Shown here: piece by piece, positions 10,008 through 30,753 of the stretch
How the letters are laid out: each line of letters begins with the position of its first letter
How positions within the stretch are numbered: position 1 is the first letter of the stretch
Source: Pseudoscleropodium purum
Lineage: Eukaryota > Streptophyta > Bryopsida > Hypnales > Brachytheciaceae
Reading direction: 5' to 3'
Length of the DNA: 64,000 nucleotides
Assembly (NCBI GenBank): GCA_963969395.1
Contig: OZ017802.1
Coordinates: 188,501-252,500, forward strand
The notes under the pieces: model-generated
The model's database searches: none
What the model was told of the DNA's origin: nothing
The model's input: only the letters and a program-made list of their open reading frames with translations
Program-made: the position numbers and the translations under genes

Positions 10008-12006
10008 CATATATAAATTGCACAAGATCAAACAAACGCCCATATTGAATCAAATTGAACATACGCCAAGTTTTCATTTAGCATCAAAATTAAGTTTCAT
10101 CACAATTTTTTTACAAGTTTGATAATGTTCCTCACTTCTTCAATAAATCACTCAGTAGCATTTGTTGATACAACGCATTTACATAACCAAATACAACCTA
10201 GCACAATAGAAGGAATCTCTAACTCTTACTAAATTAAAAACACAATCACTCACAAACTACTGGTGTCTATTGCCGCAAGAGCTCTGGACCCTCTTTCATA
10301 CTGAGGAAAAACAATCTTGTGCAATTGATTTTCAATTGGTTCACATGACTCGTTCTAAGTTCTAACCAAGAGTATAGATCACACCTCATTCATCCACCTA
10401 ATCTATGTAATAGATGAAATTCAATAGCTAAAACCCTACTAGCTAGATAAAACTATTGATTAACACCTCTAAAACTATAGTATTATAGAAAATCATAGAA
10501 TGAATCAGAAATTCAAACTATTGTGCATTTCCTCCTCTAGTTTTTACACTACAGATGGTTAGATATTATACATATAATTAAAACCTCAAAAATAATATTT
10601 GATCTCTATTGAATAAATTAAAAATTGTTTTCTTTTGAGAATTTATCAAAATTACAATTTTTTCCAAATTCTTCTATATTTTTTATGATTGGTTAAAATA
10701 ATAGGATTCATCTCTGAAAATTAAAGTAGGAAATGAACAATATCCAAAATATTATCATTTTCATGAAATAATGGATCTTCCAACCGTACAAAAATATTGT
10801 CTATTTTTATTTATCTTCATACTACAAGAATTTCACCAAATAAATTTTATTTTTGAATGGTTAAAACTAAAGTTCTTTTCATTAACCATAAATTAGCAAA
10901 AAAATCCCTAAAAAACTAATTTCATTTTTAGAAAGGTCATTTGTAATACAATTATTGATTAAACACTTGTGAGTATGGCAGTATGTCTTACCATGTATAT
11001 TCAATTCATTTGACATGTACAATATTGTTGCTCCAACTTGCTCTTGGCACAAAGCTTTTCTTTATCTTATCGCAACTTTATTGTACTAGCATGCTTATTC
11101 TTTTTTGTGCATTTGAAGGCAATTTATGTCAAATTCTTTGTTTTTGACATATAGTTCACAAATTGTCAAGTTTAGATTTAGTATAGAAAACCAAAGATTT
11201 GAAAACCCCCCCAAACCTTATTTACATCAAAGCAAAGTTTATATTAAATTATAAGCATATGAATGGTTTCTACACATTTAAATTACAAATTGCAACTTTT
11301 TAAGAAAAAACAACATCCATAGAATGTTGAATAGTGCACCATTAGAAGAACTTTCAAGCCTCCAAGTACTTAAAGTACAAAAGTCAATCTATCAAAAATC
11401 TCTACAACAATCCGTAATTCCAATATAATAATGTCACCCAATCTCAAGGATCAAATTCCAACCATTTGATTTGTGATGTTCAATGTGATTCCTACTATAG
11501 AAGGTAACTTTATGATTTCAAAATTTTTAAACAATAAGAATGGACTACCATTGTTTTTCAAAAACTAGAAGTTACGATTATTGAAAAATGAATTCCAAGG
11601 ACAAGTGACTAATTTGATTTTTATAATATTATATAGCTCTAATACAAATTACATTGGCAAGTATAGAATCATATAGACAAGAGCTTCTATGAGTTGCATT
11701 TGAAGTTGCCAAGTGAAATGTATATTAAAGGTGAAACAAAGGTTTTTTGACCAAAATTTGTTAGCAAGTAATTAGGATTGATAAGAGACTATTTGGCCAT
11801 TATAAACAATACTTGATTTATCATATTTCCATGTTGTTCTAATTGTGACACCAAATTCCAGAGCCAAAATAGAGAATAATTTATCATATGCTAGCCATAA
11901 GATAATCACATTTTTCTTGGATACATATTACAACATTATCTAGAGCATAAAATTATATACATTTTACATTAGAATATGTACTAAGATTAATGATGATGGT
12001 TAGAGG
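10008..12006. other. AT-rich intergenic DNA
   Basis: Nothing supportable: no long open frame, no structural RNA and no clear repeat end in about 2 kb of AT-rich sequence between the MITE and the E-family start. Confidence 0.6.
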
Positions 12007-12116
12007 TGTTGCACATGCAATCTAGGCGTAAGTATTTTTACACACAAAAACATGGTAAGATGACACGAATTATCATCCCAGGGAATTCTAGATGCCTTTC
12101 TAAACTCCAATATTCA
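12007..12116 (-). repeat. E-family element E2, left fragment (split by giant hAT)
   Basis: It begins TGTTGCACATGCAATC and carries the conserved terminal block TACACACAAAAACATGG..GATGACACGAATTAT..GGGAATTC, also at 50268 and 53840 and inverted at 49118-49211. The sequence breaks at AATATTCA (12109-12116) and resumes with AATATCCA at 30754. The uninterrupted copy at 50268 reads straight through this point (CCAATATCCAGATGATTG), which proves that the intervening 18.6 kb is an insertion. The gag-like gene of this copy lies on the minus strand in the right-hand fragment. Confidence 0.9.
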
Positions 12117-12262
12117 CAGGCTTGACGAATCTCTACGTCCGCCCCAAAATAGCATCCGTAACCTGGACGTCCGAACACACAGACAACAGCGGACGCAGCG
12201 TCCCTCCCGTCGTCGAAAGGTGGACGGGCAAGGCGAACGGACGGGGCGGCTTAGAAAACCCG
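12117..12262. promoter_or_regulatory. Left terminus of giant hAT with CGTCCG subterminal repeats
   Basis: TIR CAGGCTTGAC is followed by clustered CGTCCG/CGGACG words up to about 12262, then AT-rich DNA. In hAT elements of the Ac type, short subterminal repeats are where transposase binds; I infer the same role here. One TIR base differs from the consensus (CAGGC for CAGGG), which might reduce mobility. Confidence 0.75.
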
Positions 12263-12764
12263 TTTTGGGTTTTTTGTTTTGATTGTTTTCACCAATGAGA
12301 GATTGAGAGTGAAGTCATTTGGATTTGGATTTTTCTTATATTGCAATTGCGATTCAATAGAGTTATATATCACTATTTATGTAAAAACTAAAAAATGAAA
12401 TATATTTTTAATTTTTTTGTTGAATTTCATTTTGATTTAGAAACAAAATCACTTTAAAATCCAACGAGATGTATATCATCAATAAATAAACAATTCTATA
12501 ATAAAATGATTGAAGAAACCATTGTCATTTGTCAACATGAGCTCCATATATCATGAGCAACTAAATAATCAAACATCTAAATTCACATCTCCACAATTCC
12601 TATGGACGCCAATCCACATCTCCTTTAACCTCAGCCCCACTACTCTCTCCTACAGCTCTCCGTTCAAAATCTTCATTATCAAGGTCATCTTCATTGTTGG
12701 AATCAAGTATCGTTGTCTCCTTCAAGTCTTCTCTCGAAGTAGGTTTACTCCCTTCTTTCAAATT

Positions 12765-15700
12765 TCATTTTTCATTTTTTACTTTGACAGAACAATTAAA
12801 GGCTTTTTGAATAGGAACCTTTCTTTTCTTTCTATTTGACAAAGTAACAACATTTTCATCAAGAGGGGTCCTATTCTTCACTGGAGAGATAGCAAAAGAT
12901 TGCATTTCGCTTTTCGCTTTCACGTTACTCGATTCTTGAACCATCAATCTCGATGTAGGGTCGACATGTCCATGAACGGTTATCTCCACTTTGGCTTTCT
13001 TTTGAAGTAATAGAGTGCCATTTGTTGATTTGATGGGTTCTTGCACCATTCCTTTTCCTAAAATGCGAGCATGCAAAGATACCAATGGCATCCGATCACT
13101 ATCCTTATCACTTAGGCTTGTAGGTGATGACGCTACTTTCCGTAGATTACTCCCTGTAGAAATTTCTTTGAAAATGTTCATTAGGCGTTTTCCATATCCA
13201 AAGCTCTGAGAATCATTCAGTCGTGTGCTAACAGACTTCAATGGTATTGGTGGAAGAGCACTAGATCTCGGTACTTCAAAAATTGACTTCATTGGCTCTT
13301 TTCCTTTATCACTCTTCACAATTGCCGAATTTGTGACTGCCATCCCAATTGAATCACTATTTTTCTGTACCGCAATATTTGGTTCCCCCTCATCACCACT
13401 ATTGTTGCCCACATCTTTTGGAACGTCCACTTCCATGACCACATCTTCTCTTCTGTCGTTTCCTTGCACTATATTTAATACCACAGATGGAGATTGAGAA
13501 ATTAGAACTTCTTCATTTCTCCCCTCATCACCAATAGCATTCTCATTGATTTTCACCTTTTTGACAATAGTGTTTGCTTTTTCCGATAGAATGTTTTCGC
13601 TATTTAAGAATCCCATTCCATTGCAATATGTAGTTAAAGAAGGTAGATTCTCTTGTATCCCTACATTGTCCTCGTCTTCATAAAAGGTATATGCATCGTT
13701 TGCATTGTCGGGAACGACATCCTTGCAGTTTAGATGATAATCATGCGTATCATTTACCAAATCGGGAAAGTCTTACATAACGTTTTCATCTCCCCACGCT
13801 ATCGCACAATTGAAGTCATCCCCGCCATCTACAGCTAAAAGGGCCCTTTTCAAATCCTCGTCATCATTGTCTTTTAACGTCGGTCTATCTGAATCCTTTG
13901 ATTCCATCGGATCCACATTATCATTATACCATTTTTTTTCATCTTTTTCCTTCGATGTGTTTAATACTTTGGAATTAGTATACACGTACACTAAATCCAC
14001 TGCTCTCTCCGGCTTCAATTTATTTCAAGATTTGTTGTGAATAAAAGAGTAGTTGCTCCAATTCTATTCACATGAAGATGATGACACAGGTTGAGCCAAT
14101 ATCCTCTTTGCTAATGGAGCTATAAACTTGTCACATGCAAGGTTGACACGACGTCCGGACGCGGACGTTGTGTCCGCAGCGTTCGCTGACATTTGTGTCC
14201 TGGCGGACGCAACGTCCGCCTGTCCCCCGTTCACCTGTCCGCCCGTCTGCCCCGTCCGCCCGTCCGTCCGCACGATTACGGCCGTCCGATCGACACGCGG
14301 ACTGATCTGGTCCGCACAATTTGGGCGTCCGCCCCGCCCGTCCGCTTTCTGACGGCGGTCGGGACGCTGCGTCCGCTAGCGTCCGGACATCCGGAAAACG
14401 GACGCTATTTTGGGGCGGACGTTGACATTCGTCAACCCTGGTCACATGCACCTTCAAAATCCCACCAAGTATGCGCAGACAACATTTGTTCTCTCGGATT
14501 CAACATACTGTGGAATGGAGGTTCCTTGTGTCGAAAAGCCACAAATTCCTTCACCACTACTGCATATTCATCCGGTTTACATATTCTCTCCAAAACTTTC
14601 TTACATCCTAACATTGCATTTGCGTCATCCGCTAGCTCTTTGTCATGAAGAAGATATGGATTCAAAAGAGCTGCGGCTGATTGGAGATCGTTGTCCACCA
14701 TTCTTCTTCGGGCACAAAAAGACTATACTAATAGAATTGCAAGTTCTTTTAGCAAACAAAATGGTGGACTTTGTAATCCATTCACGTGCTTCTCTAACTT
14801 CCTCATGATATGCAACACTTTCCCCATGCATGGTGATTTTGAATCCAAATCGCGGAGTGTACATATGATTGGTTCAACCATTTCTATATAATTGATGGAC
14901 CGATTTCCAAAATGGTCATTAAAAACAATTTTTTTCACCGCTAAGGCTAAGTCTTTTGGTTGGACTTTGGCTCCACGTCTCTTCTTGAGAGTATGTACAT
15001 ACTCCACGCATTGCGGATCTACTACCGTTTGTTCCAATGTTCCTCTCAATTTTGTCAAATGCTCCATCATGATAAATTTAAAGGCGAACCTTGTATCCCC
15101 AAGCATCAAGAGACCAAGATTTGGCGAATACTTTCACAATAGAACTAGCGGCATATGTTTCTTTCTGATAAATTTAGCTACAAGAACTCCTTTATCCAAT
15201 TTGGAAGCAATCCATTTCTGTGCAGCCCAATCCTTCAACAACAAATTCAATGCATGTACCACGCACCCTTGGTAAAAAATATAAGGATATTTTGCAGATA
15301 TTACATCCCATGCGGACGGATTCACGGGAGCATTATTCGTAGTTATTAACCTGACGTTCTTGGACCCCACTTGTTCAATGAACTTTTCCAACACGGCTGC
15401 CAAGTACTTCGCATTTTTTTCACAACCACTTGTATCCACAGATCCAAGAAATTCTTCACTTGTGGATGATACAAGCACGACATTGATGAGAGGTCGATTA
15501 GTCATTGAGCTCCATCCATCAATGGATAATGTTGCTCCAAATTTTCGAATGCTATCTTCGGTCCGTGCATTCAACTGTGTCTGAATGTTGATCTTCGCCT
15601 CATTCAACAATTTGTATCGAAGGTCGTGGTATGAGGGAGGAATGTATGGCCTACTGAACGCAGCCGTTTTCTTCACTGCTTCTTTAAAAGTTGGATTTCG

Positions 15701-16291
15701 AGCCACGGAAAATGGTATGTTCGCCGAATAAAAAAAATTTGCCTATACTGAATGTAATTTGCGTCTATGACCTTCTTCAAATTTATTCACTAAACTGCCT
15801 TGCCTCTAAGGCCTAGAACTTGATGCCCTCGGGGTTTCACGTTCACCAGAAGTTTCTGTACTCAAAGTCACTTTAGTTGTGGCACATACCATTGATACCA
15901 ATTCTTTGGACGTTGGACAAGAGTCATTCTAGTCAGAATACGATACAGCCTTTCTGGCCGAAAACTCTTGGACATCTAAAGGCCCAGGGTTGCCATCTAC
16001 ATTGTCCACTACAACAAGTTTTGGAAAAACTCCTTCGCAATGCCAAAATAAATCTCGATTTGCCATTGGCAATCGTAGACAAAGGCTCACCCCTTTATCA
16101 CGTATACCTTCAGGCCCAAGATAGCTTAAGTGGCTCAACATATGGCCGAGCTTCCTTGCCATGACCGCCTTGCAAAGCCTACATTCTACTTTACCATCCT
16201 GTGGCACACTATACCAAGGAGAAAAATCCCCCGTCGGTTTGGCCCCCATATTGACAAGTGTATGTTTTACCTCAATTTCAAAAGAAACCAA
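12765..16291 (-). pseudogene. hAT transposase (BED finger, DUF659, dimerisation), broken
   Basis: Reads right to left. A BED-type finger has CRLC then HMLSH (about 16185-16125). A middle domain follows (15134-15743): FFYSANIPFSVARNP, then SIDGWSS with the first catalytic Asp, then ITTNNAPVN where families have TDNA, then GCVVHALNLLLKDW. Next come GDTRFAFKFIMMEHL (about 15109) and THTWWDFEGA (about 14470). After an inserted MITE the dimerisation region continues as LAKRILAQPVSSSSCE-stop-NWSNYSFIHNKS (about 14115-14035), followed by a long acidic C-terminal extension to 12765. The second catalytic Asp is Asn (GAT to AAT). In-frame TAGs lie at 15929, near 15809, near 15743 and in the CERNW motif. 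MITE C interrupts the dimerisation domain, so this copy cannot encode an active transposase. No ATG precedes the BED finger except that at 16249; an upstream exon is possible. Confidence 0.88.
14138..14440. mobile_element. hAT MITE C (303 bp) inside the transposase gene, TSD GTCACATG
   Basis: Ends are CAAGGTTGACACGACG and ACATTCGTCAACCCTG. A perfect 8-bp direct repeat GTCACATG lies at 14130-14137 and 14441-14448. It splits the transposase's C-terminal dimerisation domain between the WWDFEGA motif and the LAKRIL motif. It is about as close to MITE D as the two are to any other copy, with the same core and end sequences. Confidence 0.95.
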
Positions 16292-16560
16292 TAGAATGTT
16301 TTAAATTTGAAACTCACAACGTGACAATGTATACAATATCAATGAAATTAGTCACACAAAACTTTGAAAATCAAAGCCCCCCCATCCACCGAACTATGCA
16401 TTACCAAGCAAGAGACACAATAAATTGAAGCTCATAGCCCTTTGAAATCTTAGCGTTCGATTTTTCGAAAGTGAATACAAAAGCTTCTCTTCTAACATTT
16501 AAAATCCCCTACAGAAAATTTAGGATTTATTTTTTAGGGTTTACATTCAAAAACAACCAA
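16292..16560. other. Leader region between promoter patch and transposase
   Basis: AT-rich; no gene. On the minus strand it would be the transposase 5' leader, possibly with an untranslated exon or intron. No confident splice sites. Confidence 0.4.
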
Positions 16561-16818
16561 CAGCGCGGACGGGGCTGAACCGGACAAGCGGATAGGCTGG
16601 ACGGGGAGGGCGGTCGGTCGGACAGGGCGGATGGATGGGGCGGATGGGGCGGGTAGTTGGACAGATCGGACAACGCGGTCGGACGGGTCGGGCGAGCAGA
16701 CAGGCTAGACGGATCGGACGGATGGGTCGGATGGGCGGTCGGACACGATGGACGGGCGGGGTGGTCGGGCGGATAGACCAGACGGGACGGACGGACAGGG
16801 CGGACAAGGCGGACTTCG
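16561..16818 (-). promoter_or_regulatory. CGTCCG-rich patch upstream of the transposase gene
   Basis: About 258 bases made almost entirely of GGACGGG/CGGACGG/GGGCGGAC words on the plus strand (CCGTCCGCC on the gene's strand), bounded on both sides by AT-rich DNA. It is the same word family as the element termini and it sits about 270 bases upstream of the transposase coding start. The proline- or arginine-rich open frames across it are low-complexity artefacts. A promoter or transposase-autoregulation role is inferred from position only. Confidence 0.6.
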
Positions 16819-17116
16819 CATTGCCATTAGTCATTAGAAAATTTTATATTGTTATATAATTTGAAAGTTACACAATCAAAAATGAATGCATCCACGTAAA
16901 CTAAGATGTACATATAAAAATATTTTTATACGCAAATGAAAATATAGCATCTTTATATATAAATATATATGTATAAACAAAATACATGAAAACATTGTTC
17001 CAATATCACTACTGCATCCTATACGATCTTTTTAAGATCTAAATCTTTCACATTCTTTTTTGTTTTTAAACAATGAAAGGACCATTGTTTTTAAAAAACA
17101 AAATTCTCCTTAAATC
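16819..17116. other. AT-rich spacer between the RING gene and the transposase promoter
   Basis: About 300 bases of AT-rich DNA with a TATATA-rich segment (16955-16975). It should contain the 3' end of the RING gene transcript. Nothing else is supportable. Confidence 0.5.
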
Positions 17117-20100
17117 CTACTTTCCACCGGAGGGACCACTACTTTCTCTCAAAACAAAAGGAAAATCTGTTGTACCGAGGAGTTTAGCAAATGATTGACG
17201 AGTTGACCGTTGTTGACTTGCATGGACTATTCGCCCTCCAAATTGAACTTCGATGTCCACCTTATGAAATTGTTTTTTGGTTTCCAAAGAGAAGTCATCG
17301 TCCTCTTCACGCTTTTTTTTTTTTTTTTTTTTCGGTGATAAATCGACTTTGTCTGCCTTCAAGGTTCTCAAGTTGCTCTCCATATGATCTACCATCGCTT
17401 GAATAACTTCATCATCTCCTTTCCCTTGCCATACTGTGAGGCAGTCTCCATCCAATAGGAAAGCCTTCCAATGCCCTATAATATCACCAATGTGCCTATC
17501 AAATGTTACTGCCACATCTACAAATGAATGTCCTGTGCTTGTTTGTCCATTTGTATCGTAGACAGCACGAACTTTTGCAGTCTCTTCTAACTTCAACAAT
17601 AGAAGGGCCCTACCTACGAGGGTGTGGTCCTATGCCTTATACTGCTCATCGAACTCTTTTTCATGGTTCACCTCCACCCAACTGTCTTCTGGTCCTCTCT
17701 CCACTTTTTTATCTGGAAAATGAAAGAACTTTTCGTATTGCAAGCTCCAATGTCCCCCCATGTTGTAACAAAACATTTCACGGGCGACGTCATCTACAAT
17801 TCCTCGAGCCCGCAATTCCACCTCTCTATTGTGAATCATCCACACATCCAAATCCAATGGTTGCTGAGATTTCTCGTACAAATCATGCCTCTGTTCATTT
17901 GCATTCCACCGGATTGACTTCCCCCAATGTTGATAATTTTGGAATTTGTACGACGCTTGATCAAGAGGAAGATTCCAACGATTGTACTCGTGGCCTGGAG
18001 GCATAGCTTCCAAGATACCAAACATTTCGTAGAACCTAGTACTCAATGGACTTCGACACTCGGCACACACCGAACGAATGAGTGATGCTTTCACAATGCA
18101 AGTAACATGGAAAGTGTGACGACATTGGCCTATGGTTGCCGCACCTTCCGGTCCGAAGAGGCCTTGGCAAAGGCTACAACAACCATCCAAGATTGGAGAG
18201 GCTGGATCACAAGCATGCACCACTCGCTTGTCTTTCACATTGATGATGTGTGCTGAAAGTGTGTTGTAAGGGACCCATCCTTCCTCTATTTCCAAGGCCC
18301 AATTGATGGGTGGAGCTTGGTTCTTCTTTGTGTGGTTTAACCGCTCAAACATGGCATCCATGTCTCCCCAACATGTGATCTCCATATATCCCTTAGAAGG
18401 ATGTTGGTCAAACATAGTCTTGAACCAACTCAAAGAGCTTTGAATGGCATCGCAATTTTCATTCGACTCCATTGCCAGTTTTTGAAGACCTGCCATTGCT
18501 CGAGATACTACAGAGGGTTTGTCTTGGAGTCTTTGTACCCATGCTAACCATCGAGACTCCAAGCCGCTAGATGGCATAAACTTCTTCAAATCCAAGGACA
18601 ATTGCAATCGATTCAACTTGGATTCAACGATTCCTTTTGCTTCAATTGCCTCCTCTAATTTATGCTTCAACTCTTCAAAGTCACAACTCTCCGTTTGTAT
18701 CTCCGCATTCACGTAAACGGATGAAAGCTTTTCCATTGATGGTTGTAGTGTCGCTTTTAACATGCTCATGTCGTGATTTTCTTGTACATTCACAATGGCA
18801 GGGTTGTCGCTTGTTTCGGCCTTATCAAAAGGAAGAGAGAGCTTATCTTCACTCTCTTGAGTCTCTTGACTGTCTCCGAGTACAATCATTGGTGAAATTG
18901 CAACCTCACTTGGATTCTTGAAGGTCCCTTGTAATTCTGCAATCCGTTTACGCATCTTCATCAACTCCTCCATTTGCCTCGATGATTGTTGATTTAAATG
19001 TTCAACCTCACTCTCCGAAGTCTTTAATTTCAACTCCAACACTTTGCACCTTGCTTCCACTCCTCCAAGGTCAGCAATTTTCTTCTCATATTCCACCAAT
19101 TGTAGTATCTGAGCATCTCTTTCTTCGAAAAGTGGTCCGAAAGTCTTTGTAAGATTCTGAAATGCTATAGCACCTTTCAACATCTCTAGTGCCATGAAAG
19201 AAAACTCCTTGGCCAAATTTATAAAAGACGGAGCAACTTGTGATAAAAATTCAGCTGACATCGTCATCTTGAAAGCTATATCAAGTATATGTGCAACATT
19301 CTTTGGATCTGCAAGTGGACTCATTGGAACAACAGTAGCACCATCATCGGGATTAGACGATCCGCCTATTTCTTCATGAAGGTTAGCAAACTGAACCGAG
19401 AGCTTCAAAAGATTTTCCAATTGTTTTGGATTGGACATGTCTTGCAAGGTTCGATGTAGAGGACTCGGAAATGACGCTGTATACGGAAACTCCTTCGCCC
19501 GCTTTTTACACTCGGAACTATCTAATGAGGATATATTTTCAAACGTCACGCCTTGTCCACAAGGCGTATGTATTTTGTCTTCTAAACTTAACACTAGACT
19601 AGATTCAACGCCTTGATGCATAGGCGGAGATTTGTAGACCAAACTATCAAAACAATTGTTAGCTATCAGACTATCAATTGTAGCATTAGCCTTTGCCACT
19701 TTCTCCGCCAAGACTTCGTTTGCTTTACTTTTTGAAGTTTTCCCGCGTTCCGTGCAAACCTTGCCTTCGTTTACAAACTCCGTTTGCGTTTGTGCCGCAA
19801 CATTTGGTATAAAGGTCAAACGCGTTGGAGTTGTGGAAAAGACTTCACCCTCCTGCGCCTCTACATCTTTCTCCACATCTTTCTCCACATTTTTCGAAGA
19901 GCTTTCATTGATTGCTTTTGTTGGAGATTGTACAGACCGTAATTCTTCAACATTTGAGGCTTTCTCCACACCATCCGTTTTCACCTCAATAGTATTTTTT
20001 AATATTTTTTTTGTTTCTCCCTCTGAATTGTACAAGTCGGGAATGTCCTTCTGATTGGCTTCAAGTAGAAGTGAGCAAGCTGTTGTTGTCGGAAATGTGC

Positions 20101-20518
20101 TCTAATCGATCTTGCGCTCTAATATAAGTTCAACGTAAACCATACACGCCACGTTATAATTAATATAGCCTTTGCTTCTGCGCTTGTTTCCGAATAGAAC
20201 ACGCCACACCTCCTGAGATCGATGGACAAAATGTTTATTGTTGCAAGTCCATGGTTTACAACAAAAATCCCGTGTATGACTCTTGTGCGATTCCTGAGGC
20301 CACAACTTGTCAATGTGGTACATTTTAGTATAGGTCATGCATATTTTTGATGTACAATATTTCGCATCTTCATCTTCCCACCCGCTCTCTGTTTTAATTG
20401 TAGGGTCATTTAAAATGTCAAGCCAAAGGTCATGTGTAGCTCCCTTCACTTTGCTCTTTTTCTTGGCTTCACTTCCCGGAGTCACCTCATCAAAATTTTG
20501 ATGACCTTCGCTGTTCAT
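17117..20518 (-). pseudogene. RING-H2/coiled-coil protein of the giant hAT, two in-frame stops
   Basis: One continuous frame of about 1,134 codons from ATG 20518 to 17117, broken only by TAG at 20102-20104 and TAA at 17630-17632. The N-terminal 140 residues (SGWEDEDAKYCTSKIC..YTKMYHIDKLW..NYNVACMVYVEL) match the N-terminus of the plus-strand gene at 24613. A Lys/Glu/Ser-rich linker follows. A heptad-like coiled coil (VLELKLKTSESEVEHL..MKMRKRIAELQ) lies near residues 480-530. A RING-H2-type finger (CSLC..CRHTFHVTC..CAEC, about residues 776-825, nt 18190-18050) points to E3 ubiquitin-ligase-like or protein-binding activity. A C-terminal region with a poly-Lys run (T20 at 17313-17332) follows. 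I do not recognise the overall architecture. It is non-functional as read unless the stops are sequencing or RNA-level differences. Confidence 0.75.
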
Positions 20519-20744
20519 GATTGTCAATTGGATTCAATAACCAATTGAAGTGAATAAAAAAATCTCACATGATAGTCAAAAGTGATGGCATCAACCGTAA
20601 CCCAATAACAAAAGATAGAGGACCCCAACTCTCTACCCTATAGGAGCAACTAGCGCATAAAGCAATAGAAGCACATCCAACTTGGCACCAAAGGAAAATT
20701 GAAGTAAGAAGAAATGAAAAGTCACTCTACCCTTATAGCCGTCT
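20519..20744. other. Leader of the RING gene
   Basis: About 225 bases between the putative ATG (20518, minus strand) and the GC-rich patch. No coding signal; presumably the 5' untranslated region. Confidence 0.45.
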
Positions 20745-21300
20745 GCTGCCGGACCTAGAGGATGTCTGCCGCCGGACCTAATCCGGACCGCGCGAAGCGG
20801 CCCCGAACCTTGCGTCCGCCGCCCAGACCGACGACGTCCACTTCGGCAATGGACGCGCCATCCGCCCGTCGCCCCATCCACCCGGACTGCAGGGTTGACA
20901 AGACGTCCGGACGCGGATGCTGTGTCCACAACGTCCGCTGACATTCGCATCCTAGCGGACGCAACGTCCGCCTGTCCCCCGTCCGCTTGTCCGCCCGTTC
21001 GTCCGTCCATTCGCCTGATTACGGCCGTCCGATCGACGCGCGGACTGATCTGGTCCGCACGATCTGGGCGTCCGCCCCGCCCATCCACTTTCCAACGGCG
21101 GTCGGAACGCTGCGTCCGCTAGCGTCCAGACGTCCGAAAAACGGACGCTATTTTGGGGTGGACATTGACATTCGTCAACCCTGCCGGACTGTCTACACTG
21201 TCTGCCTTCTGATGCAGTCCGTGCTTTGGACACGCCGACCGCCCCCCCTTAATCACTGACCGCGGATGGCGTCCGTCCAACTTCCCATTGGAGCATCCTA
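20745..21300 (-). promoter_or_regulatory. GC-rich CGTCCG patch upstream of the RING gene, split by MITE D
   Basis: GC-rich repeats at 20745-20889 and 21184-21300, with words such as GCGTCCGCCGCCC, ATCCGCCCGTCGCCCC and GCGTCCGTCC, lie upstream of the minus-strand gene. The patch was one unit before MITE D inserted at 20890. Its composition and position parallel the patches ahead of the other three genes. A promoter role is inferred. Confidence 0.55.
20890..21183. mobile_element. hAT MITE D (294 bp), TSD CCGGACTG
   Basis: Starts CAGGGTTGACAAGACG and ends ACATTCGTCAACCCTG. A perfect 8-bp duplication CCGGACTG lies at 20882-20889 and 21184-21191. It carries the same internal core as MITEs A and C (ACGGCCGTCCGATCGACGCG, about 21021). 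It is inserted in the promoter patch of the RING gene. Confidence 0.95.
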
Positions 21301-24068
21301 TGAGGCCATTATTACTCAAAAAGAGCGGTAACATTTCAAAAAAAAACAATCTAATAATCACTACTAAATGAGGATCAATGTAATTGATTTATCATTTTAT
21401 TTTAAAAAAACATGTAAACCCTAAACCCTATACCCTAATTATCCCAAACCTTTTTCTTTTCTCCCCTAAATTGTTTTACGAATGAGGGGAATGTGGTTAA
21501 GTTGAATATGTTTGGATTATTTACTGATATTATTCCTCTAAATAGGTTTTGAGAAGATCTGAAGATGGTGGGGATTTTTTTAAAGTTCATTAGGAAATCA
21601 AATGTTTTGCAAAAATAATCAATTCTTTTTTCATTGTAAGCAAATGAAATTTTTTTAAAAGGCCCCAATACATAATTAGAATAACAGTTTAATGGATTAC
21701 AACCTCATGATATTTAATGAAAGGTTGTGATTTCTCATTAAAAGTGCATCATGATCTTCAAATGAACATCAAGTCTTTCATATTTTTTAATGAAATTTTG
21801 ATTAGATTTGAAAACAAAGAAAAAAAATCAATGTTTTAACTTTCAAATCATGTATGGCTATATTTTTCCTTAAAAACATAGAAAAATTCGTTACTTGAGT
21901 TGGTTGAGTAGAATACATTATACACTTATACATGATTACATGTGCTATATTTATTTTGAAGGGTAATTTCAATATTCTTATTTCAAATGTTTTTAAATAT
22001 TAATTTTAAAAAAGAGGATTCATTGTTTAAAGATCTAAAAATTGACAAACATAATTTCTATTATAAATAAGAATTGAATTCGGAATTCGAATTTTGAAAT
22101 GATTCAAATGAACAAGATATTGATTATAAAATATTTCTTTGTTTCAGTTTTCAAAATGAATTCACGAAACAATTGCAAACTTTTGAACTTAGGTATATGG
22201 TATTGTTTTGGATTTGTACTTTGTAGAATATAATACTTCAATTTTAATCCTAAATAAATGAAAAAACTCCACATGAATGAAATGTTTCTATGTATTGCAC
22301 AAAGATTTCTACCAATTACTATGATAATTAAATACATTGTTACATTTCATAAAATATTCTACATAGAAAGAAAAAATCATTTCAGTTTTCAATCATGATA
22401 AACGATGTCTTCTATTCTTTCTGTTATATATTCATTTTGTATAATGTGTACATTGTACAATCTTTGAGAGCAAGGTAGTTCATTTTTGACTCTCATTGAA
22501 ATAGAAAATATATTTGTGTTTGGATTTTGAAATCATTATGTATTCTACGGTCTTACAAGAATGCATCTTGCTCCTTCCTTTGAATCCTTTTGATATTTTT
22601 TTTTTTCCTTTGCTTTCTCGTAGGGCTCTTGTTCTCTTGTTCTCTTCATTTGACCAGCCTATTTGGCTTGGCTCTTAGTTTTTTGTTTTTTTAATGCAAT
22701 GGTTTATGCATATGTTATAAAAAATATATATTATTTATTTAAAATTAATATATTGATGAACAAACGCATAAAGGCATTGAATGCTTTCACATTTAAAGTT
22801 ATAAATCTATCATAAATCACTCTTGCAAATTTGAATGATTGAATCGAAAATTTGAAAATGTAATTACAAGAGCTTTCAATTCAATCAATTGCATAAATCA
22901 TAAATGTTGAAATGCAACTCGTATGAGTTTAGCATCTATGAAGATTAATTCATACCATCCACATGCAATTTTCCAATTTAATAAAATGCAATTAAGTACT
23001 TCAATTTTTTTCCCTCCAATTCTCTAAATAACATTCATTTCATATCTTTCTCTATTTGTTTATTTAATTTTTGAGAACAAATGAAGAAACCATCTTTGTC
23101 TATATTTGAACATGCACTCTTATTTGATTGATGAAGAATAGATCTATGAAATATATAATCATTGATTTGTTTATGTTGATTTATCTAATATATTTTATGT
23201 ATGTATATATATTTATATATATATATCATTAAGGAGTATGGAAGACAAGATTGACAGATTGTGTTCAAATGTTGTTGATTTTGAAATGATTTAGTACTAT
23301 ATCATTTATAAGAATATTATAATAGTGTTATGTTATAATATTCCTAAAACAATTGCAACAAATATTAAAATACATGCTAAGTTAGGTTTGTTAGCCTACC
23401 AATTGTTCATTAATAGATATAATTGAGTAGCCCCCTTAAAGAAAACATTCAATATCTAATATCTTACAATCCAAATGGTGGATTTGTCTAAAATTTTTTC
23501 CAGATCTTTTACAACTAATTTACTACAACATTCTACGATTACATATGCCCCAAAGTATTTTTCTTCTAAGACTTGGTATTTGCACTACTAATGGCAGTTT
23601 TGAAGTGTTTTTAGTGAAAAGAACTTTAGGGGTTAAACATCTCACCGTTAGATTTTGAAAAAAGAACCATTTGCTTTATTGGGGATAACTATAAGTCCAT
23701 GCTCTTCTTTGATAGCCAAAACACACTTGCAAAGACTTGAACATTTAGCGGTTTACTAAGTGATTAGATGTCAACTAATTCAATTTAATAGTAGAATTTT
23801 TATTCAACTACCTTCTTACAATTGCTTTATACACAATGCAATGTGAATATTTGGACAAATATATTAAACGTTACAATCCTTTCGTGAATTTTTGCACATT
23901 TTAGCTCATATCTTTGTACAAAAATATCATTTACCAAGAATTCATAAATTTGGTCATAAAAGAAGGCTACCTTTTTTCATTTCAAATTCTACATTGGATG
24001 AACGAAAAGTTAGTTGGACTATACAGTGCCATAAAGACCTCTGTTTATCCTACAAAATATGAACGTCG
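21301..24068. other. AT-rich central spacer of the giant hAT
   Basis: About 2.8 kb of strongly AT-rich DNA between the two divergently arranged gene pairs. Open frames are short (77-95 codons), AT-driven and without motifs. I see no RNA gene, no nested element ends and no retained intron of a larger gene. Confidence 0.55.
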
Positions 24069-24400
24069 GAGCGCTTCAGGGTCAAACCGCCCCGTCCGCC
24101 TTCATATCCGTCCGCCCCATCCGTGCCGCCCCCCGTCCGCCCACACCCCGTCCGCCCTGATACCCGTCCGTCGTCCGTCCTATCTGCCCTATCCGCTGTG
24201 ATACCCGTCTACCCGTCTTCCATTCGCCGTGTCCGCCCCGTCTGCCCCGATTCTCGTCCACCATGTCCGTCCAATCGGCCGTCCGTCCTGTCTGCCCCGT
24301 CCGCCCGGTTACGGCCGTCCGATCGACACGCGGACTGATGTGATCCGCATGATCTGGACGTCCGCCTCGGGGCGTCCGCATATATATATGGGGAGGTGGA
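24069..24400 (+). promoter_or_regulatory. CGTCCG patch with MITE-like core and TATA box, upstream of GSY gene
   Basis: CCGTCCGCC-type repeats run from 24069 to about 24370. Within them, 24303-24380 contains the same core as the MITEs (ACGGCCGTCCGATCGACACG then CGGACTGATGTGATCCGCA). A TATATATATGGGG box follows at 24371-24384, about 230 bases before the ATG at 24613. It lacks MITE terminal repeats, so it is not a complete MITE. This is the best promoter candidate of the four patches because a TATA box directly follows the repeats. Confidence 0.65.
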
Positions 24401-24612
24401 CGGCTCATTCCGAATAGTCGTTCTCTTTTGGAGTGGGCGGACCAGTGCCTTAGAAGCTCTACGTGCCCCTTCCGCTTTGAGTGAACGATTGTTGTGACAT
24501 TGTTACAAATTTTCACAAAGTTCACGCTTGTAAAGTTTTAATTAATTAATTAAATCAAAATTTTGGTTCTTAAGCTTTCTCATTGTTTCATTCTCTTTGC
24601 TTCGGCTTCATC

Positions 24613-25875
24613 ATGCCGAAAGATAAAACACCAAAAAAAAGTAGTCGAAAGGGAAGACCCCAATTGTTCGATTGGGATGCTTGGGCCGATCCATTGTGCG
24701 TGGGTGAACCGGGATGGGAAGAGGAACCAACAAAAGTGTGGGATTGCTCAATGTGCAAGAAGTATGTAAAAATGACTCACATTCAAAAACTTTAGCGACG
24801 TGAACGTGTAGAGCACCAAGCGCCACGTTGGGAAGGACAAATGTCTACGTGCCCAAGTGAGCACTTCAAACAACGATATACACAAGTGCATCAAGTTCTT
24901 GGCATTAAAAGCGCCAAACCAAATATAATGAATTATAATGTTATGGAAATGGTTTGGGCAGAGATTGTACTCCACAAAGACGTGGACTGGCGTACCGCTA
25001 CAGGTCGCAATGTGAAGAACTATACACGCACGAATGCCGTTATAGATACACAATAGAAGGGCACAAGGGATTGCATGCCAAAGTGGTTCAATCAAGGTCA
25101 TCTACAACAACCTTCAGTTGTTCTACGAGATGCTGAAGATGCGTGGTCAGATGACGATGATGACAATGATATGCAAGCGCCTGTCACATTTGGAGTTAGG
25201 CACGAGCGGGTAGAAGAACGAGAACGAATTGAATTCGAACAACAAATGCAAGAGACAACACGCAGAAGCCTTCAAGATCGTGGACGGCAAGATAGGCATG
25301 GTGGGTCCTACGGACGTGAACATGGAACGCAAGGATCTGAACAAGGAAGAGGTGGTTCATACTCTAGTTACGATCCTCAAAATAGATATGAAGGTGGAAG
25401 AGGGAGCTATGGATCCACGCATTATGGTGGTTCAAGTACAGTTGGTTCTCATTATGGCACTCCCCCTGAAATTGGCTCTCAAGGTGGAGCAGGTAGCTAT
25501 GGCAACACGCACTATGGTAGGTCTAATGGATCTGATTCATATTATACTACGCCCACTCAAGTGGACTCCGAAGGTAGTGGAGGAAGTCATGTAACTCCGT
25601 AGTATAGTTACTCTCTTTACGGAAGCGTCCAATACTATCCGGGATCAACTAGAAGTGATTCATATGGGCATCATGGGGCCTCTTATTACGGGGCTTCAAA
25701 TGAAAGAGGATCAGAGCCTATTACTCCGGTTCGTCCTCCTACTTTTGGAGGTTCAAATTATGGACAAGGAGGTGCACCGAGTAGATATCACGGAAACTAC
25801 GGAGGTGATCTGTTCATTAGAGTACAAAGAAGAGGCACCGGTCAACAATTTGAGTTCAATTCAGATTCCGAATAA
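24613..25875 (+). pseudogene. Zinc-finger-like protein with Gly/Ser/Tyr-rich tail, three in-frame TAGs
   Basis: A single frame of 421 codons from ATG 24613 to TAA 25875 with exactly three internal stops, all TAG (24793, 25054, 25600). The N-terminal region (DWDAWADP..GWEEEPTK..CSMCKKYVKMTHIQKL..NIMNYNVMEMVWAEI) is homologous to the N-terminus of the minus-strand RING protein. It has a CxxC plus a conserved His and later Cys/His, suggesting a zinc-binding, possibly BED-like, DNA-binding fold. A short acidic run (WSDDDDDND) follows, then a low-complexity tail of about 180 residues rich in G, S, Y, R and Q (GGSYSSYD, GSYGSTHYGG and similar), probably disordered. No catalytic motif. The family name is unknown to me. 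A DNA-binding accessory role in transposition or regulation is inference from the shared domain. Confidence 0.7.
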
Positions 25876-26889
25876 AAAAACATGCAAGTATATAGTGAGC
25901 ATGTATTTGCTCAATTTTCTCATTTTTACTCTCACGACAAGTATAGAGCACTAGATTGGTAGAAATAGTATAAAATTTTAAATGAATAGAACAATTTTGA
26001 ACAACAATTTTGTTCACTTTTTCAAAAAGTGTTGTGTAATAGTGTACACCAAGTATGTATGTAGGCAAGCATATTGTTGAAGACATCATTGTATTATTTT
26101 ATAATAGCGTTGATGTAGAAGGCTATAAGTGACTTTAATAAATAATAAAAATATGAAGAAGAAATGTAGCTTTGTAAGAGCCATATTATGTCTATTTTTG
26201 AATTCAGCATTCAAGGTTAAATATGTACTAGCATGGTGTGTATTTTGAAATTATTGTTGTGTGTTTATTACTTTTAGAAACTCGTAAATGATATAAATGT
26301 ATTTCTAATTAATTTATGAAAGATTGAATTATTTGAATATTTGAAATTTTTTTATTCTTCATTCAACGATTGCTAAAAACTAAAATGATTTCTTATTAGT
26401 ATGAAGAAATGCCCAAATTAGACAATTAGTAGTTCCTCTTTAAATTTTATTTTCAAATATGGAAGTTCACTAAAATGGTTTATTTATGGTTCTTTAATTG
26501 ACAAGTACATTGATGGAATGCACCGACAAAAAAAACATTATTAAATACAAGAGTTAATCCTTCCCTTTATCTTTTCCATTTTTATTTAAAATTGCAAGTG
26601 CACCATTTATGAAAGACCTAAGGTCACAATAGGGACCTATGATGCAAGTCATTTGAAAATTTATAAATAAATTACAAATCTTTGATAAAATACAAAACCA
26701 CTTGATTTTAATTCCTCATCAATTTCTCTTTGTCTAAAAAATGAGAAAAAAATATTCTCATCCAAAGAAATAGATGAAAAAAGCGGATCAGCTATTAGAT
26801 GCACCATTTTTGAGACTCCCAACCTGCCTTAAGACTTGAAAACAAAATCAAATTTGAAACTCATAAAAAAAATCGGGATATTAGAGCAA
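25876..26889. other. AT-rich spacer
   Basis: About 1 kb of AT-rich DNA between the GSY gene and the next promoter patch. It probably includes the GSY gene's 3' end. Nothing else to support. Confidence 0.55.
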
Positions 26890-27175
26890 TCCGTCCTTCG
26901 CCGTCCGATCGGTTTACACCAGATTTGTCTGCTCGTGGCCGTTGAATCGGGCGGACATCTAATCCGTCTGCCTCTATCCGTCGGATCGGGCGGACGCCAG
27001 ATTTGTCCGCCCGTGGCCATCCGATCGAGCGGACGGGGCTCTAGGGTTTCGGGAAAGTGGACGGCCGATGCATCCACCATCCCCGGCCCGTCCGATCGGG
27101 CAAACGGTTTGGGGCCATCCGATGGAGCGGACGGGCCATCCGCGCCTTATAAGAAGAGCGGACAGGCTGTCCGCA
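26890..27175 (+). promoter_or_regulatory. CGTCCG/GGCGGAC patch and TATA box upstream of the kinase-like gene
   Basis: GC-rich repeats here favour CCGATCGGGCGGAC and CCGTCCGATCG words rather than the plain CCGTCCGCC of the other patches. A CTTATAAGAAG box lies at about 27147, roughly 220 bases before the ATG at 27369, a spacing similar to the GSY gene's TATA box. Promoter function is inferred. Confidence 0.6.
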
Positions 27176-27368
27176 TTCTCACTTTTGTTTTGCCCCTTGT
27201 GAACACAAGGTGGAGCGGGAGCTTGGTGGTTCAACTTCCATTGGCTTCTTTCCTAGGCAAGGCAAGAGTGGTTTATTGGGGCCCCCTTGTTGCCAATTTT
27301 TTAACATTTGCACGAGGAATTCAGATTTAAATTAAAAAATTTCATCCATATCAGTTTCATTTGTCACG

Positions 27369-28902
27369 ATGCCGAAGGGGAAGAAGAAGGTTGCAAAGCT
27401 AAAATTTGGAGAGGGACCATCAAACTTGGAGGTAGCTCGCCAAAGTCCTTCAGAAGAATGCAAAACATTCATGATCGAGCGCATCGTTAAATTTTATGAA
27501 TTGGAAACAACATTGTGTTTAGACAATAAGTGCATCAGATATCAAGAGGAGGGCGTGTCTAAATTCAAGGTAGATATGACACAGATGTTGTTGGATGCAT
27601 TGAATGTTTCGAAGTGGCATGACAAAATGGATAAAACGCACTTCACTAAATGTTAAAAGAACAAGGTTCATAACGCTTTGTGAAAAATTCCAAAGTCATT
27701 TTGGTTAAATATGGCAAGGAATATCGACCCAATGACACCCAGTTTGAAGAAGTGATTCTGAAAGCCGACTTATTTAGGAGGCGATGTGCTCCATTCGCCA
27801 AAAAGCACAATCGAGTTGGTTCGATTGCTTGGTGGAAAAACAATGATGGAGTTGCTGAAGGGAAAAAGACCAAATGGCACCTAATAGCACTTCCAGATAC
27901 AGCACACGTGATTCCTGTTGATAATAGAACGATGAGAGGTGAATATGCAACGATTCGAAAGGTTCGTATTGAAGGATGTCCAGGAATACTTCCTTATTGG
28001 GAGTTTGTGGCAAAAAAATCCATTCACTACCAAACTCGATCCGATCTTGCAAAGTTAGAACATCAAAACAAATCAATGGCTGTTCGAATTCCACATGCGG
28101 GTGTCATACGGTTTGCTGCGGTGCACGAAAGGACGTGTGAAGGTTATGCGTATTGGTGGAAAGGTGGAACTCTTCGACAAATGTTGAATATGGATAAGGA
28201 CTATCGAGACAACATTCAAATCCGTTTGATGTATACGAATTCAACCGAAGAAGAGGTTGTAAAAGCTCATCGTTTAGGGCAATATCAAAAGAAGCGCATG
28301 GAACTGATATGGGCGTTTATATATATAATGTATGCAGTACATCTTGCTGGACATTTGCACAATGATCTTTCTCCGGACAACATCTTGTTGCATTTTCCAG
28401 AGGATGAGTCACGTTGTCATGTGTGTACATTGGAGTTTGTGATTGGGGCATGACCACCTTAGTTTCTCAACCAATGAAGTCTTTGTACACATCCACATCA
28501 ACAGATGAGATGAAACAAACTTTGCAGAGGAGATGGTGGGTGGATCCACGTATTACATATTTGCATAAAGCAGGTGCAGATGTGGAAGTCATTCCGATGT
28601 ATTCACGTAAGTCGGAAGAGTATGCCATTCGAAAAATTGCTCGGCAGATGAATGGAAACAACATGTCAGAGGCGTATTTCAACTTGCTACTTAAAACACC
28701 TAGTGCGACATAATTTGCCTTTCATGACTTTGCAAAAGTGTTTTATGCTTACTTGAAGCGCATTTTTTCGAGAAGTGACGATGAAAATACTAGTTTGGCC
28801 TATGTGATTACGCGATTTTCTAATACATATCGTTGGCCAATGCCAGATGAACATTTCCGCCATTTATATTAGATTGGGAGTGCAGAAGTAGTAGTTGAAT
28901 AG
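27369..28902 (+). pseudogene. Protein-kinase-like protein of the giant hAT, frameshifted
   Basis: ATG 27369 opens a lysine-rich N-terminus (MPKGKKKVAKLKFG). The frame is lost at a TAA (27654-27656), recovered in another frame by about 27674, and shifts again near 28425. A second TAA lies at 28711 and a TAG at 28870, with the final stop at 28900-28902. Kinase hallmarks in order: GEYATIRKVRI resembling a nucleotide-binding loop, FVAKKSI with a possible VAIK-type Lys, HLHNDLSPDNILL corresponding to the catalytic HxDxxxxN loop (His-Asn-Asp-Leu, Asn retained, about 28350-28390), and CDWGMTT in place of DFG. The catalytic Asp and both metal-binding positions are present, so the ancestor could have been an active kinase. 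In this copy the frame breaks make it a pseudogene. Substrates are unknown. Confidence 0.72.
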
Positions 28903-29101
28903 GTTATATAGGCATTAAAAATTAGTTTAGAAATATAGAGTTGGAATGAAAAAAATTATATGTGCAATTAGCCAAATGTGCACACTATGTGGTATATGTA
29001 AATTTTTGAGTCCACAATGTATGATATTCAATATTAAATTCAATACATTTTGCCCATATTGATTATGTTTGTATTTGTGTTGATCTCGATTTTTTAAATA
29101 G

Positions 29102-29133
<32 letters not shown>

Positions 29134-30539
29134 GTTACAAATTTTTTTAGTTTGCCTTCTGAAAATGAATTGGAATTTTTTCATAGTTTCAAGAGTATCA
29201 TGGACTTATGGTCAAACTTTATAATCTTTCAACTTATAAGAGACATTGTTTTAATTTTTTTTCCCATGTGGTTTAATCCCTAGAGGACCAACATGTGTTT
29301 TTGGGCAATATATAATTTTTGGGCATACGTGTGACTGTAGATTTGCATATTTTGGACTGAAATTTTTTAATAGAATGTAGGGATGAGGAATATCTTCCAT
29401 ATGCACAAATTTCATGACATTTGAAAATATGACTCAAAAGTTATTGCATAGTATGTTGTTTGTTTTTCAACTCAGGCATCCCGGGGCTCCGAGTAGATCT
29501 AAAAAAATTAACTTTTCAAGAAATTAAAATTTGAAATTAGTTCTTGAAATATATATGTATTCAAAAACATTAAAATCATTGCATTTCAATAGTTGAGATA
29601 AAAGTTATGAGGCTTTTTAGTTTGCGGACAGTCATAGAATCTTTACACCAAAAAAAACTTTGAAGTCCATTATTTTACTAAAATTTCAATATTTTTGAAA
29701 AATAATAATAATACTGGATGTATAATGTTTATAACAACAATTCACCATTTGGATTGAAAATTTTTAATTCTATAACTAATTTACTAACAATTTAGTATTT
29801 TGAATCATTCTCTATTTCTTTCTACTTACTAATTTTTTCCTATATGTTGTACAACTCCAAATGATCTGAAAATTTTCATATGTGTAGCAAGCTTGCCTTG
29901 AAGAATGTATCCAGAGAAGCACAACCATTTTGGACAATTCTTCATAATGATCTAACCTTTTGAAGCGCAGTTGCCCGTTTTTTTACATAGTTGCGTAGGG
30001 TCATAAAAAGGATTTTTATCACTTCAAAGTTTAAATGCTAATATCTTGCAATCTACATGGTGGAAATTTCTGAAACCTTTTCCACATACTCTCAAATATA
30101 TTAGTACAAGATCATACGGTCACATCTGTCAAAAAATGATATTTTTCAAAATTTTGGTACTTATACAAAAAAATGGCAGTTTTGGAGCATTTTTAGAGAG
30201 AACAGAATCAAGGACCTTTAGGGTTAAAACTCACAGTTTTTAAACTTGAAATAATATGAAATTAAGTGTTCAATGAATGCATTTGAAAATATATTTATTT
30301 TAGTTTTTAGTTTTTTAGTAGCCTTTCGCATTACAAATTTAGAAGTTTAAATTTTTTTGATATAAGTATATAACATGTCTACGTTGAATTAGTAGGGTTA
30401 CATTTCCCAAAAAATTAATATAACTCATGAAAATGGTTTCGTTTCCCTTTAATTTTAAGGAAACATTTTTTTAAATATTTTTTATAACAAATAGCGAACC
30501 ATTGCACTTCATTTAATATTTAATTGTTTAAGGATTAAG
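28903..30539. other. AT-rich right arm of the giant hAT
   Basis: About 1.6 kb of AT-rich DNA. It contains an (AT)n microsatellite at 29102-29129 and no gene-sized open frame with a motif. Confidence 0.55.
29102..29129. repeat. (TA)n microsatellite
   Basis: Fourteen uninterrupted TA units in AT-rich DNA within the giant transposon's right arm. Confidence 0.95.
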
Positions 30540-30753
30540 GGAGTGACCGCGGGGCAGTTTGGGTAGGGCGGTCGGGGGAAACAGGGCCATCAAAGCGGAC
30601 AGGGCAGACGGGCCGGGTGGACGGACGGGGCAGAGGGGCAGACAAGCGGACAGGGGGACACGGCAGATAGGGTGGACGGGGCGGACGGGTGGACGTATCG
30701 TCCGCCGGGACCGCGAATGTCAGCGTCTGCATCCGGACGTCCTGTCAACCCTG
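30540..30753. promoter_or_regulatory. Right terminus of giant hAT with subterminal repeats
   Basis: GC-rich repeats (GGACGGG, GGGCGGACGG, GTGGACGG) start abruptly at about 30543 after AT-rich DNA and end in CGGACGTCCTGTCAACCCTG at 30753. The last 70 bases, reverse-complemented, align with the 5' end of MITEs A, C and D. The following 8 bases AATATCCA are the right copy of the target duplication. Confidence 0.85.

What the first reader, a model, noticed from the sequence alone, without database searches (positions are those of the whole stretch)
12117..30753. An 18.6-kb giant hAT transposon carrying four genes
Seen: CAGGSTTGAC inverted ends, a 7/8-matching 8-bp duplication, two distinct ends that each match the proper end of ~300-bp MITE relatives, and an intact sister copy of the target (E3 at ~50370) that reads across the empty site. 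Known: hAT elements (Ac, Tam3, hobo) are usually about 2.5-5 kb with one transposase gene. Here the same ends enclose a transposase plus RING/coiled-coil, zinc-finger-like and kinase-like genes. I know of no described hAT with this cargo; novelty is my inference. This is the best candidate for an undescribed system in the window.
Basis: partly seen in the sequence, partly recalled or inferred. Interest (0 to 1): 0.95.

Follow-up and report, generated by a model that had tools for sequence, protein, structure and literature searches.

The report
Four-gene hAT transposon in a moss
A plant, most likely a moss, carries many copies of an unusually large hAT jumping gene that encodes not only its transposase but also a RING-finger protein, a related glycine-rich protein and a protein kinase, so the element seems to bring its own control machinery.

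Summary
The element 12117-30753 has CAGGSTTGAC-type ends and a 7/8-matching 8-bp duplication; three paralogous stretches in the window read straight across its empty site. It is not a merger of smaller elements of this family: the only internal paired ends belong to two ~300-bp MITEs, each with its own duplication. The same four genes, in the same order between the same ends, recur in a second fully read copy (about 16.3 kb, C41). The transposase-RING junction was found at 24 places (window included), and RING and gene C are linked in 25 pairs, 0 in opposite orientation. The genes: a hAT transposase, a RING-H2/coiled-coil protein, a Gly-rich protein whose N-terminus is paralogous to the RING protein's, and a protein kinase with invariant catalytic residues. 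Derivatives carry transposase+kinase (about 9.6 kb) or RING+gene C+kinase (11.65 kb), both known with perfect 8-bp duplications; their deletions sit at GC-rich CGGAC blocks between genes. Proteins from other genomes suggest, by equal contig lengths, that transposase and RING, or transposase and kinase, are linked there too. The window copy itself is broken. I read it as a multi-gene hAT, a new variant of a known kind. What the accessory proteins do is inference.

The parts
12109..12116 (.). left target-site duplication AATATTCA
12117..12267 (+). 5' terminal region, CAGGCTTGAC end plus CGGAC-rich block
12750..16249 (-). transposase gene (BED-like N-terminus, DUF659, hAT dimerisation); broken by stops and a nested MITE. 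Boundaries approximate, by comparison with the 1101-aa open frame of copy C1_12239 (P0020)
14138..14440 (.). nested MITE of the same family inside the transposase gene, TSD GTCACATG on both sides
16567..16817 (.). GC-rich CGGAC block between transposase and RING genes (breakpoint region of derivatives)
17117..20518 (-). RING-H2 / coiled-coil gene (about 1,120 aa), two in-frame stops in this copy
20717..21267 (.). GC-rich block, including the nested MITE 20890-21183 with TSD CCGGACTG
21184..24016 (.). about 3-kb spacer without a long open frame, present in the three forms that were read
24017..24417 (.). GC-rich CGGAC block before gene C
24613..25880 (+). gene C: N-domain paralogous to the RING protein's N-terminus, then a Gly-rich tail (frames of about 427-430 aa in many other copies); end approximate
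26917..27217 (.). GC-rich CGGAC block before the kinase gene
27369..28872 (+). protein-kinase-like gene (505-aa open frame, about 497 aa from the first ATG, in intact copies); disrupted here
29438..30478 (.). about 1.05 kb absent from the C41 sister and from the other copies compared; probably a later insertion
30567..30753 (+). 3' terminal region ending GTCAACCCTG
30754..30761 (.). right target-site duplication AATATCCA

Best explanation
12117-30753 is a decayed copy of a native four-gene hAT-superfamily DNA transposon whose undisturbed length is about 16.3 kb. SHOWN: same ends and same four genes in the same order in an independent copy; high copy number; conserved catalytic and zinc-binding residues; shorter forms flanked by 8-bp duplications behind the same ends. 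INFERRED: the transposase cuts and pastes the full element and its derivatives in trans. The RING protein and gene C share an N-terminal domain that probably binds element-specific repeats (the CGGAC blocks at the ends and between the genes). Through the RING E3 module and the kinase the element ubiquitinates or phosphorylates host silencing factors or its own transposase, keeping itself expressed and controlling transposition, by analogy with VANC of VANDAL elements. CGGAC blocks between genes act as deletion points that shed genes and create transposase+kinase or RING+C+kinase derivatives, which then depend on one another.
For: Second full copy: C41 copy B maps to window-element positions 1-2023, 2327-8235, 8228-8762, 9068-11567, 12109-17322 and the 3' end. 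Transposase-RING junction: 24 places including the window, 11 full-span and 13 as two adjacent pieces (counted in 111; 40 of 936 first-look candidates scored; three near-identical inverted pairs among the 24, so at most 21 independent). Linkage by coordinates, same versus opposite orientation: RING to C 25/0 (0.12 expected each), C to kinase 6/0 (0.18), RING to kinase 4/0 (0.09), junction to RING 3/0 (window included), junction to C 2/0. Copy number, first-look candidates / scored: RING 920/55, kinase 1549/85, C 1206/150. Transposable forms: 9550, 9593 and 10405 bp with perfect 8-bp TSDs; 11,651 bp with TSD GTTTTATA. Transposase: DUF659 5.8e-32, Dimer_Tnp_hAT 8.6e-09; D278, D339, E658 invariant in 22 sequences. 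Kinase: K223, E242, D340, N345, D363 invariant in 18; model pLDDT 81.4, best structure match E 3.5e-07, the 50 listed matches are kinases by name (one listed only as a phosphotransferase). RING: eight C/H ligands invariant in 19. C and RING N-termini: BLASTP 1e-17. Mean pairwise dN/dS: RING 0.56, kinase 0.56, transposase core 0.68. Other genomes: RING and transposase proteins on contigs of identical length and source type (17649, 8444, 7321), transposase and kinase on 27639.
Against: Only two end-to-end four-gene copies were read; neither has a perfect TSD (window 7/8, C41 B rearranged) or four intact genes. Of ten 5'-end neighbours fetched, none has RING behind its own 5' end, and of the nine that could be judged one has gene C. 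Six of seven further RING loci have the 5' end beside RING instead of the transposase, two of the six being one inverted pair; in one (L035) the spacer side does not match either. Of the ten, three show a perfect TSD, two are explained by rearrangement, five are unresolved or not reached. Junction to kinase gave 0 pairs (capped lists). Kinase: Pfam Pkinase stays below its cut-off, and structure matches have TM-scores of only 0.28-0.38 over the query. The RING structure model was poor (pLDDT 47). Some pairwise dN/dS values reach 0.94 (transposase core) and 2.15 (tail). Shared contigs in other genomes are inferred from equal lengths. No expression, methylation or biochemical data.
Confidence: 0.8

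Rival explanations
1. Binary system: two cooperating element families with common ends, a transposase+kinase element and a RING+C+kinase element, and the four-gene form is a recombinant of them.
For: The short forms dominate the copies sampled: of ten 5'-end neighbours eight are transposase+kinase without RING and C (some with inserts), one is transposase+C+kinase, and one (C1_12226) lacks RING but its C and kinase region was not reached; 6 of 7 RING loci have the 5' end directly beside RING. Both short forms are known with perfect TSDs.
Against: The spacer and kinase half is common to the forms read, and the breakpoints of both short forms fall in CGGAC blocks, as expected for deletions. RING and transposase proteins only 41/61%, 32/53% and 33/47% identical to these seem to share contigs in other species. 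The junction was found at 24 places.
Confidence: 0.25
2. Recent capture of host genes (Pack-hAT-like passengers) with no role for the element.
For: RING and kinase domains are common in hosts (recalled), and Pack-type capture is known for plant MULEs (PMC6446971, passages).
Against: Hundreds of first-look candidates; proteins conserved at 27-73% identity in many other sequences with the catalytic and zinc-binding residues kept; mean dN/dS no higher than for the transposase; a domain duplicated between two accessory genes.
Confidence: 0.07
3. Chance merger or nesting of several smaller elements at 12117-30753.
For: Internal CAGGGTTGAC-like ends exist, and two MITEs are nested inside.
Against: The paired internal ends of this family with duplications belong to MITEs; the same gene order recurs at an independent locus and in coordinate pairs.
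Confidence: 0.03

Closest known systems
hAT superfamily (Ac/Ds, Tam3, hobo)
   Same: 8-bp TSD, short CAGG-type TIRs, DDE transposase with hAT C-terminal dimerisation region, MITE derivatives, and rearrangements with the signature of reversed-ends transposition
   Different: four genes and about 16 kb instead of one gene in about 2.5-5 kb (usual size and gene number recalled)
DUF659 hAT-like transposases of flowering plants and a fern (Trifolium, Rosa, Prunus, Ceratopteris)
   Same: transposase family, 24-31% identity in the alignment, same catalytic residues
   Different: seen as single proteins; no accessory genes were looked for there
VANDAL/Hiun MULEs with vanB and vanC, and MuDR with mudrB (PMC6446971, passages seen)
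   Same: plant DNA transposons with genes besides the transposase; VANC is an anti-silencing protein
   Different: another superfamily; the terms kinase and ubiquitin do not occur in that paper's main text
ToxhAT/ToxTA, 14-kb fungal element (PMC12506042, abstract and passages seen)
   Same: large element once called a hAT with several genes
   Different: reclassified there as likely Tc1/mariner (TA duplication), non-autonomous, single copy
Starships (PMC12506042 passages; PMC11623301 search listing only)
   Same: large multi-gene eukaryotic DNA elements
   Different: tyrosine recombinase, fungal, variable cargo (the last recalled)

Membership tests
hAT superfamily | 8-bp target-site duplication | tested here: met
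   perfect in the 9550, 9593, 10405 and 11651-bp copies; 7/8 in the window copy; perfect in 3 of the 10 fetched 5'-end neighbours
hAT superfamily | short TIRs (5-27 bp according to PMC12506042, passage) | tested here: met
   10-bp CAGGSTTGAC inverted ends
hAT superfamily | hAT transposase with C-terminal dimerisation domain | tested here: met
   PF05699 8.6e-09, 35.5 bits against a cut-off of 21.4
hAT superfamily | DDE catalytic triad and CxxH motif | tested here: met
   D278, D339, C363, H366, E658 invariant in 22 sequences; that these are the catalytic residues is recalled
hAT superfamily | transposition in living cells | not testable with these tools
   only sequence is held
RING-H2 E3 ligases | C3H2C3 zinc ligands | tested here: met
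   C769 C772 C787 H789 H792 C795 C806 C809 invariant in 19; Pfam RING scores below cut-off for the window protein and P0001, above it for P0002, P0006 and P0018
RING-H2 E3 ligases | E2 binding / ubiquitination | not testable with these tools
   no assay
eukaryotic protein kinases | catalytic Lys, Glu, HxD Asp, Asn, DxG Asp | tested here: met
   K223, E242, D340 (HND), N345, D363 (DWG) invariant in 18; their roles are recalled
eukaryotic protein kinases | kinase fold | tested here: met
   Foldseek best E 3.5e-07, 1352 matches at E<=0.001, the 50 listed are kinases by name (one as phosphotransferase); TM over the query only 0.28-0.38; Pfam Pkinase below cut-off
Pack-hAT (captured host genes) | no transposase, recent host fragments | tested here: not met
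   transposase present in the full form and genes conserved in other sequences; host orthologues were not searched for
VANDAL/MULE | MULE transposase | tested here: not met
   transposase is hAT; Transposase_mut only E 0.027, below cut-off

The most novel reading that the evidence does not exclude
A hAT transposon has evolved a self-encoded post-translational control circuit: a repeat-binding RING E3 ligase, a RING-less paralogue that may antagonise or tether it, and a kinase. These act at the element's own CGGAC repeats to lift host silencing and to tune transposition. Loss of cassettes at the same repeats creates partial elements that depend on each other.
Probability: 0.35. Interest if true: 0.92.

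Novelty: new variant of a known kind. Interest (0 to 1): 0.8.

Why it matters
hAT elements are textbook one-gene transposons. A high-copy hAT family that encodes a RING-type ubiquitin-ligase-like protein and a protein kinase, kept under constraint and apparently linked to the transposase in other genomes, would show that cut-and-paste elements can carry enzymes that modify proteins after translation. It makes the question of how plant DNA transposons counter silencing testable in what is probably a moss, a haploid and genetically tractable kind of plant. The family also seems to rebuild chromosomes by alternative transposition.

Tried and rejected
Merger of small elements of this family: rejected (only MITEs are nested). 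RING as a separate nested element: rejected, because at the borders of the RING segment I saw only GC-rich blocks and no family ends other than the MITE's, and type II copies use the hAT 5' end. ToxhAT as a precedent: rejected as a hAT. PDB sequence search for transposase and kinase: no match at E<=0.1. PADLOC: weak kinase-motif matches only, taken as chance. RING structure model: too poor to use. A genome search with the 3' end did not complete. A third end-to-end four-gene copy could not be fetched. Inverted neighbours as a general rule of the family: not upheld in the kinase list, 5 inverted against 4 direct pairs within 50 kb (by inspection).
Full report
WHAT IS THERE. The window is G000:C46:188501-252500 of a 313-Mb, 52-contig genome. 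Apart from a protein filed under a Bacilli metagenome bin, the named relatives of the kinase are proteins of the moss Ceratodon purpureus, so I take the host to be a moss; this is inference. The ends at 12117 and 30753, the 7/8 duplication and the match to MITE ends are real. The empty site is confirmed by three paralogous stretches within the window. All four genes of the window copy are broken.

SISTER COPIES. The 300-bp 5' end has 2411 first-look candidates; the 40 scored are at least 89% identical. I fetched 20 kb at ten of the other 39 scored places, the ten best. None has RING behind its own 5' end. Eight are transposase + kinase without RING and C (seven with the kinase in the expected place, C44_22575 further on after inserts); C1_11738 is transposase + C + kinase; C1_12226 has a 12.5-kb insert and its C and kinase region was not reached. 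Three of the ten have perfect TSDs: 9550 bp ATCCTAAG, 9593 bp TCCAAAAA, 10405 bp CCACTCAG. Copy C1_12239 has a 1101-aa transposase frame without stops; C46_5047 and C48_13298 have 505-aa kinase frames without stops.

THE RING SEGMENT. A genome search with the RING protein gave 920 first-look candidates; the 55 scored match over at least 822 of 823 residues, the 54 other than the window at 89-91%, some without stops. Of the seven RING loci other than the window's that were read, six have the transposon 5' end directly beside RING instead of the transposase (two of them, L030 and L031, are one 99.2%-identical inverted pair; in L035 the spacer side does not match), and one (L033, C47:1281735) has transposase sequence beside it. 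The C40 copy is complete: 11,651 bp, TSD GTTTTATA on both sides, RING (frames of 1075 and 61 aa, split by a stop) + gene C (with stops) + a 505-aa kinase frame without stops, no transposase.

THE FOUR-GENE FORM RECURS. At C41, copy B carries window-element positions 1-2023, 2327-8235, 8228-8762, 9068-11567, 12109-17322 and the 3' end, that is, transposase, RING, gene C and kinase, about 16.3 kb by its coordinates, without the window's MITEs and without its extra kilobase. The transposase-RING junction was found at 24 places including the window: 11 across the 901-bp query and 13 as two adjacent pieces; 15 further places in that list match only the transposase half and one only 326-901 (40 of 936 candidates scored). 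Three near-identical inverted pairs are among the 24. By coordinates, RING is followed by gene C in the expected orientation 25 times and never in the opposite one (expected 0.12 each), C by kinase 6/0, RING by kinase 4/0, junction by RING 3/0 (one is the window), junction by C 2/0, junction by kinase 0/0 (capped lists). At C49:4387246 the junction, RING and gene C lie in order.

THE PROTEINS. Transposase: DUF659 and Dimer_Tnp_hAT above cut-off; D278, D339, E658 and C363/H366 invariant in 22 sequences, including flowering plants and a fern. RING protein: eight zinc ligands invariant in 19; a long helix (395-524 of P0002) in an otherwise poor model; no Pfam hit in its N-terminal part. Gene C: 150 places scored of 1206 candidates, frames up to about 430 aa, Gly-rich tail. 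Its N-domain is homologous to the RING protein's N-terminus: 37% identity over 105 residues, E 1e-17. It matches 12 of the 19 RING relatives; the other 7 give no hit at E<=1 and lack most or all of that stretch in the alignment. Kinase: five catalytic positions invariant in 18, kinase-like fold in the model with modest TM-scores; HND and DWG stand for HRD and DFG. P0021 itself carries an F in HNDLFPDN where most relatives have S. Mean pairwise dN/dS among copies: RING 0.56 (28 pairs, range 0.43-0.74), kinase 0.56 (45, 0.34-0.87), transposase core 0.68 (55, 0-0.94), transposase tail 0.75 (54, 0.41-2.15). Such values mix selection with neutral decay.

AGE OF THE LINKAGE. Among proteins from other genomes, RING and transposase relatives share contig length and source type three times (17649 ena, 8444 jgi, 7321 ena), and transposase and kinase once (27639 ena). 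I could not open these contigs, so this is circumstantial. It favours the four-gene form as ancestral and the shorter forms as deletion products.

CASSETTES. CGGAC-rich GC blocks lie at both ends and between the genes of the window element; 83 of 95 CGGAC/GTCCG words lie in 11.6% of its length. The breakpoints of both short forms fall in these blocks. One of the seven blocks is the MITE nested in the transposase gene.

ALTERNATIVE TRANSPOSITION. At C41, the 3' end of copy A and the inverted 5' end of copy B are flanked by the same 8-mer (ATAAAAAA in element orientation), with the target inside B itself. At C1:12.23 Mb two 99.9%-identical copies lie head to head, with the break at the 5' end and ACCTTTGG at one copy's 3' end and beside the other's 5' end, where the first bases are slightly changed. 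This is the pattern expected of reversed-ends transposition, known from maize Ac/fAc (PMC9910405, passages; PMC3744419, search listing only). That TSDs are inverted in such inversions is recalled. Neighbouring copies within 50 kb, by inspection of the capped lists: RING 4 inverted / 0 direct, gene C 4/0, 5' ends 2/0, but kinase 5/4; the lists overlap.

MECHANISM. Shown: one family of ends, one transposase, four recurrent genes with conserved key residues. Inferred: the shared N-domain targets element repeats; RING and kinase act on silencing factors or the transposase; short forms are moved in trans. The nearest functional analogy is VANC in VANDAL elements (PMC6446971, passages). I give the anatomy about 0.9 and the anti-silencing/regulatory role about 0.35-0.4.

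NOVELTY. Searches (open-licence PMC papers only) listed no paper whose title or abstract start describes a hAT with RING and kinase genes; the listings were capped (20 of 31, 20 of 92, 15 of 218), and the papers were not read apart from passages of three. Repbase and subscription papers were not searchable. The 14-kb ToxhAT is no precedent: it was reclassified as likely Tc1/mariner (PMC12506042). The element meets the hAT features that I could test, so it is a new variant of a known kind.

Noticed in passing
G000 C41:17.48-17.51 Mb (L019, L020, L040): Inversion with a transposon 3' end and an inverted neighbour's 5' end sharing one 8-bp duplication: signature of reversed-ends transposition.
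   Followed up: yes
G000 C1:12225819-12239356 (L002, L003, L009-L012): Two 99.9% identical copies head to head, break at the 5' end, ACCTTTGG shared by one 3' end and the other 5' end.
   Followed up: partly
G000, lists: Near-identical copies often lie close together in inverted orientation: by inspection, pairs within 50 kb are inverted/direct 4/0 (RING), 4/0 (gene C), 2/0 (5' ends), 5/4 (kinase); in the junction list 4/0 within about 75 kb. Alternative transposition or an assembly artefact could explain it.
   Followed up: partly
window 9716-10007: Another MITE of the family, TSD CATATATA on both sides.
   Followed up: partly
window 30754-33126, 47914-49213, 50268-51479, 53845-55211, 56295-57453: The target of insertion belongs to a family of paralogous stretches in both orientations; one frame had no clear Pfam match.
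   Followed up: partly
window 43928-45506: Imperfect tandem repeats with a unit of about 0.3 kb (offsets of 303, 606 and 909 bp, 73-74% identity); also inverted repeats centred near 47438 and 59240.
   Followed up: no
P0058, P0044: A kinase relative in Ceratodon purpureus is a cluster of 126 member sequences, tagged KC19_VG (perhaps the V sex chromosome): the family may be expanded there too.
   Followed up: no
P0023: A 73%-identical kinase is filed under a Bacilli metagenome bin; probably plant DNA binned with bacteria.
   Followed up: no
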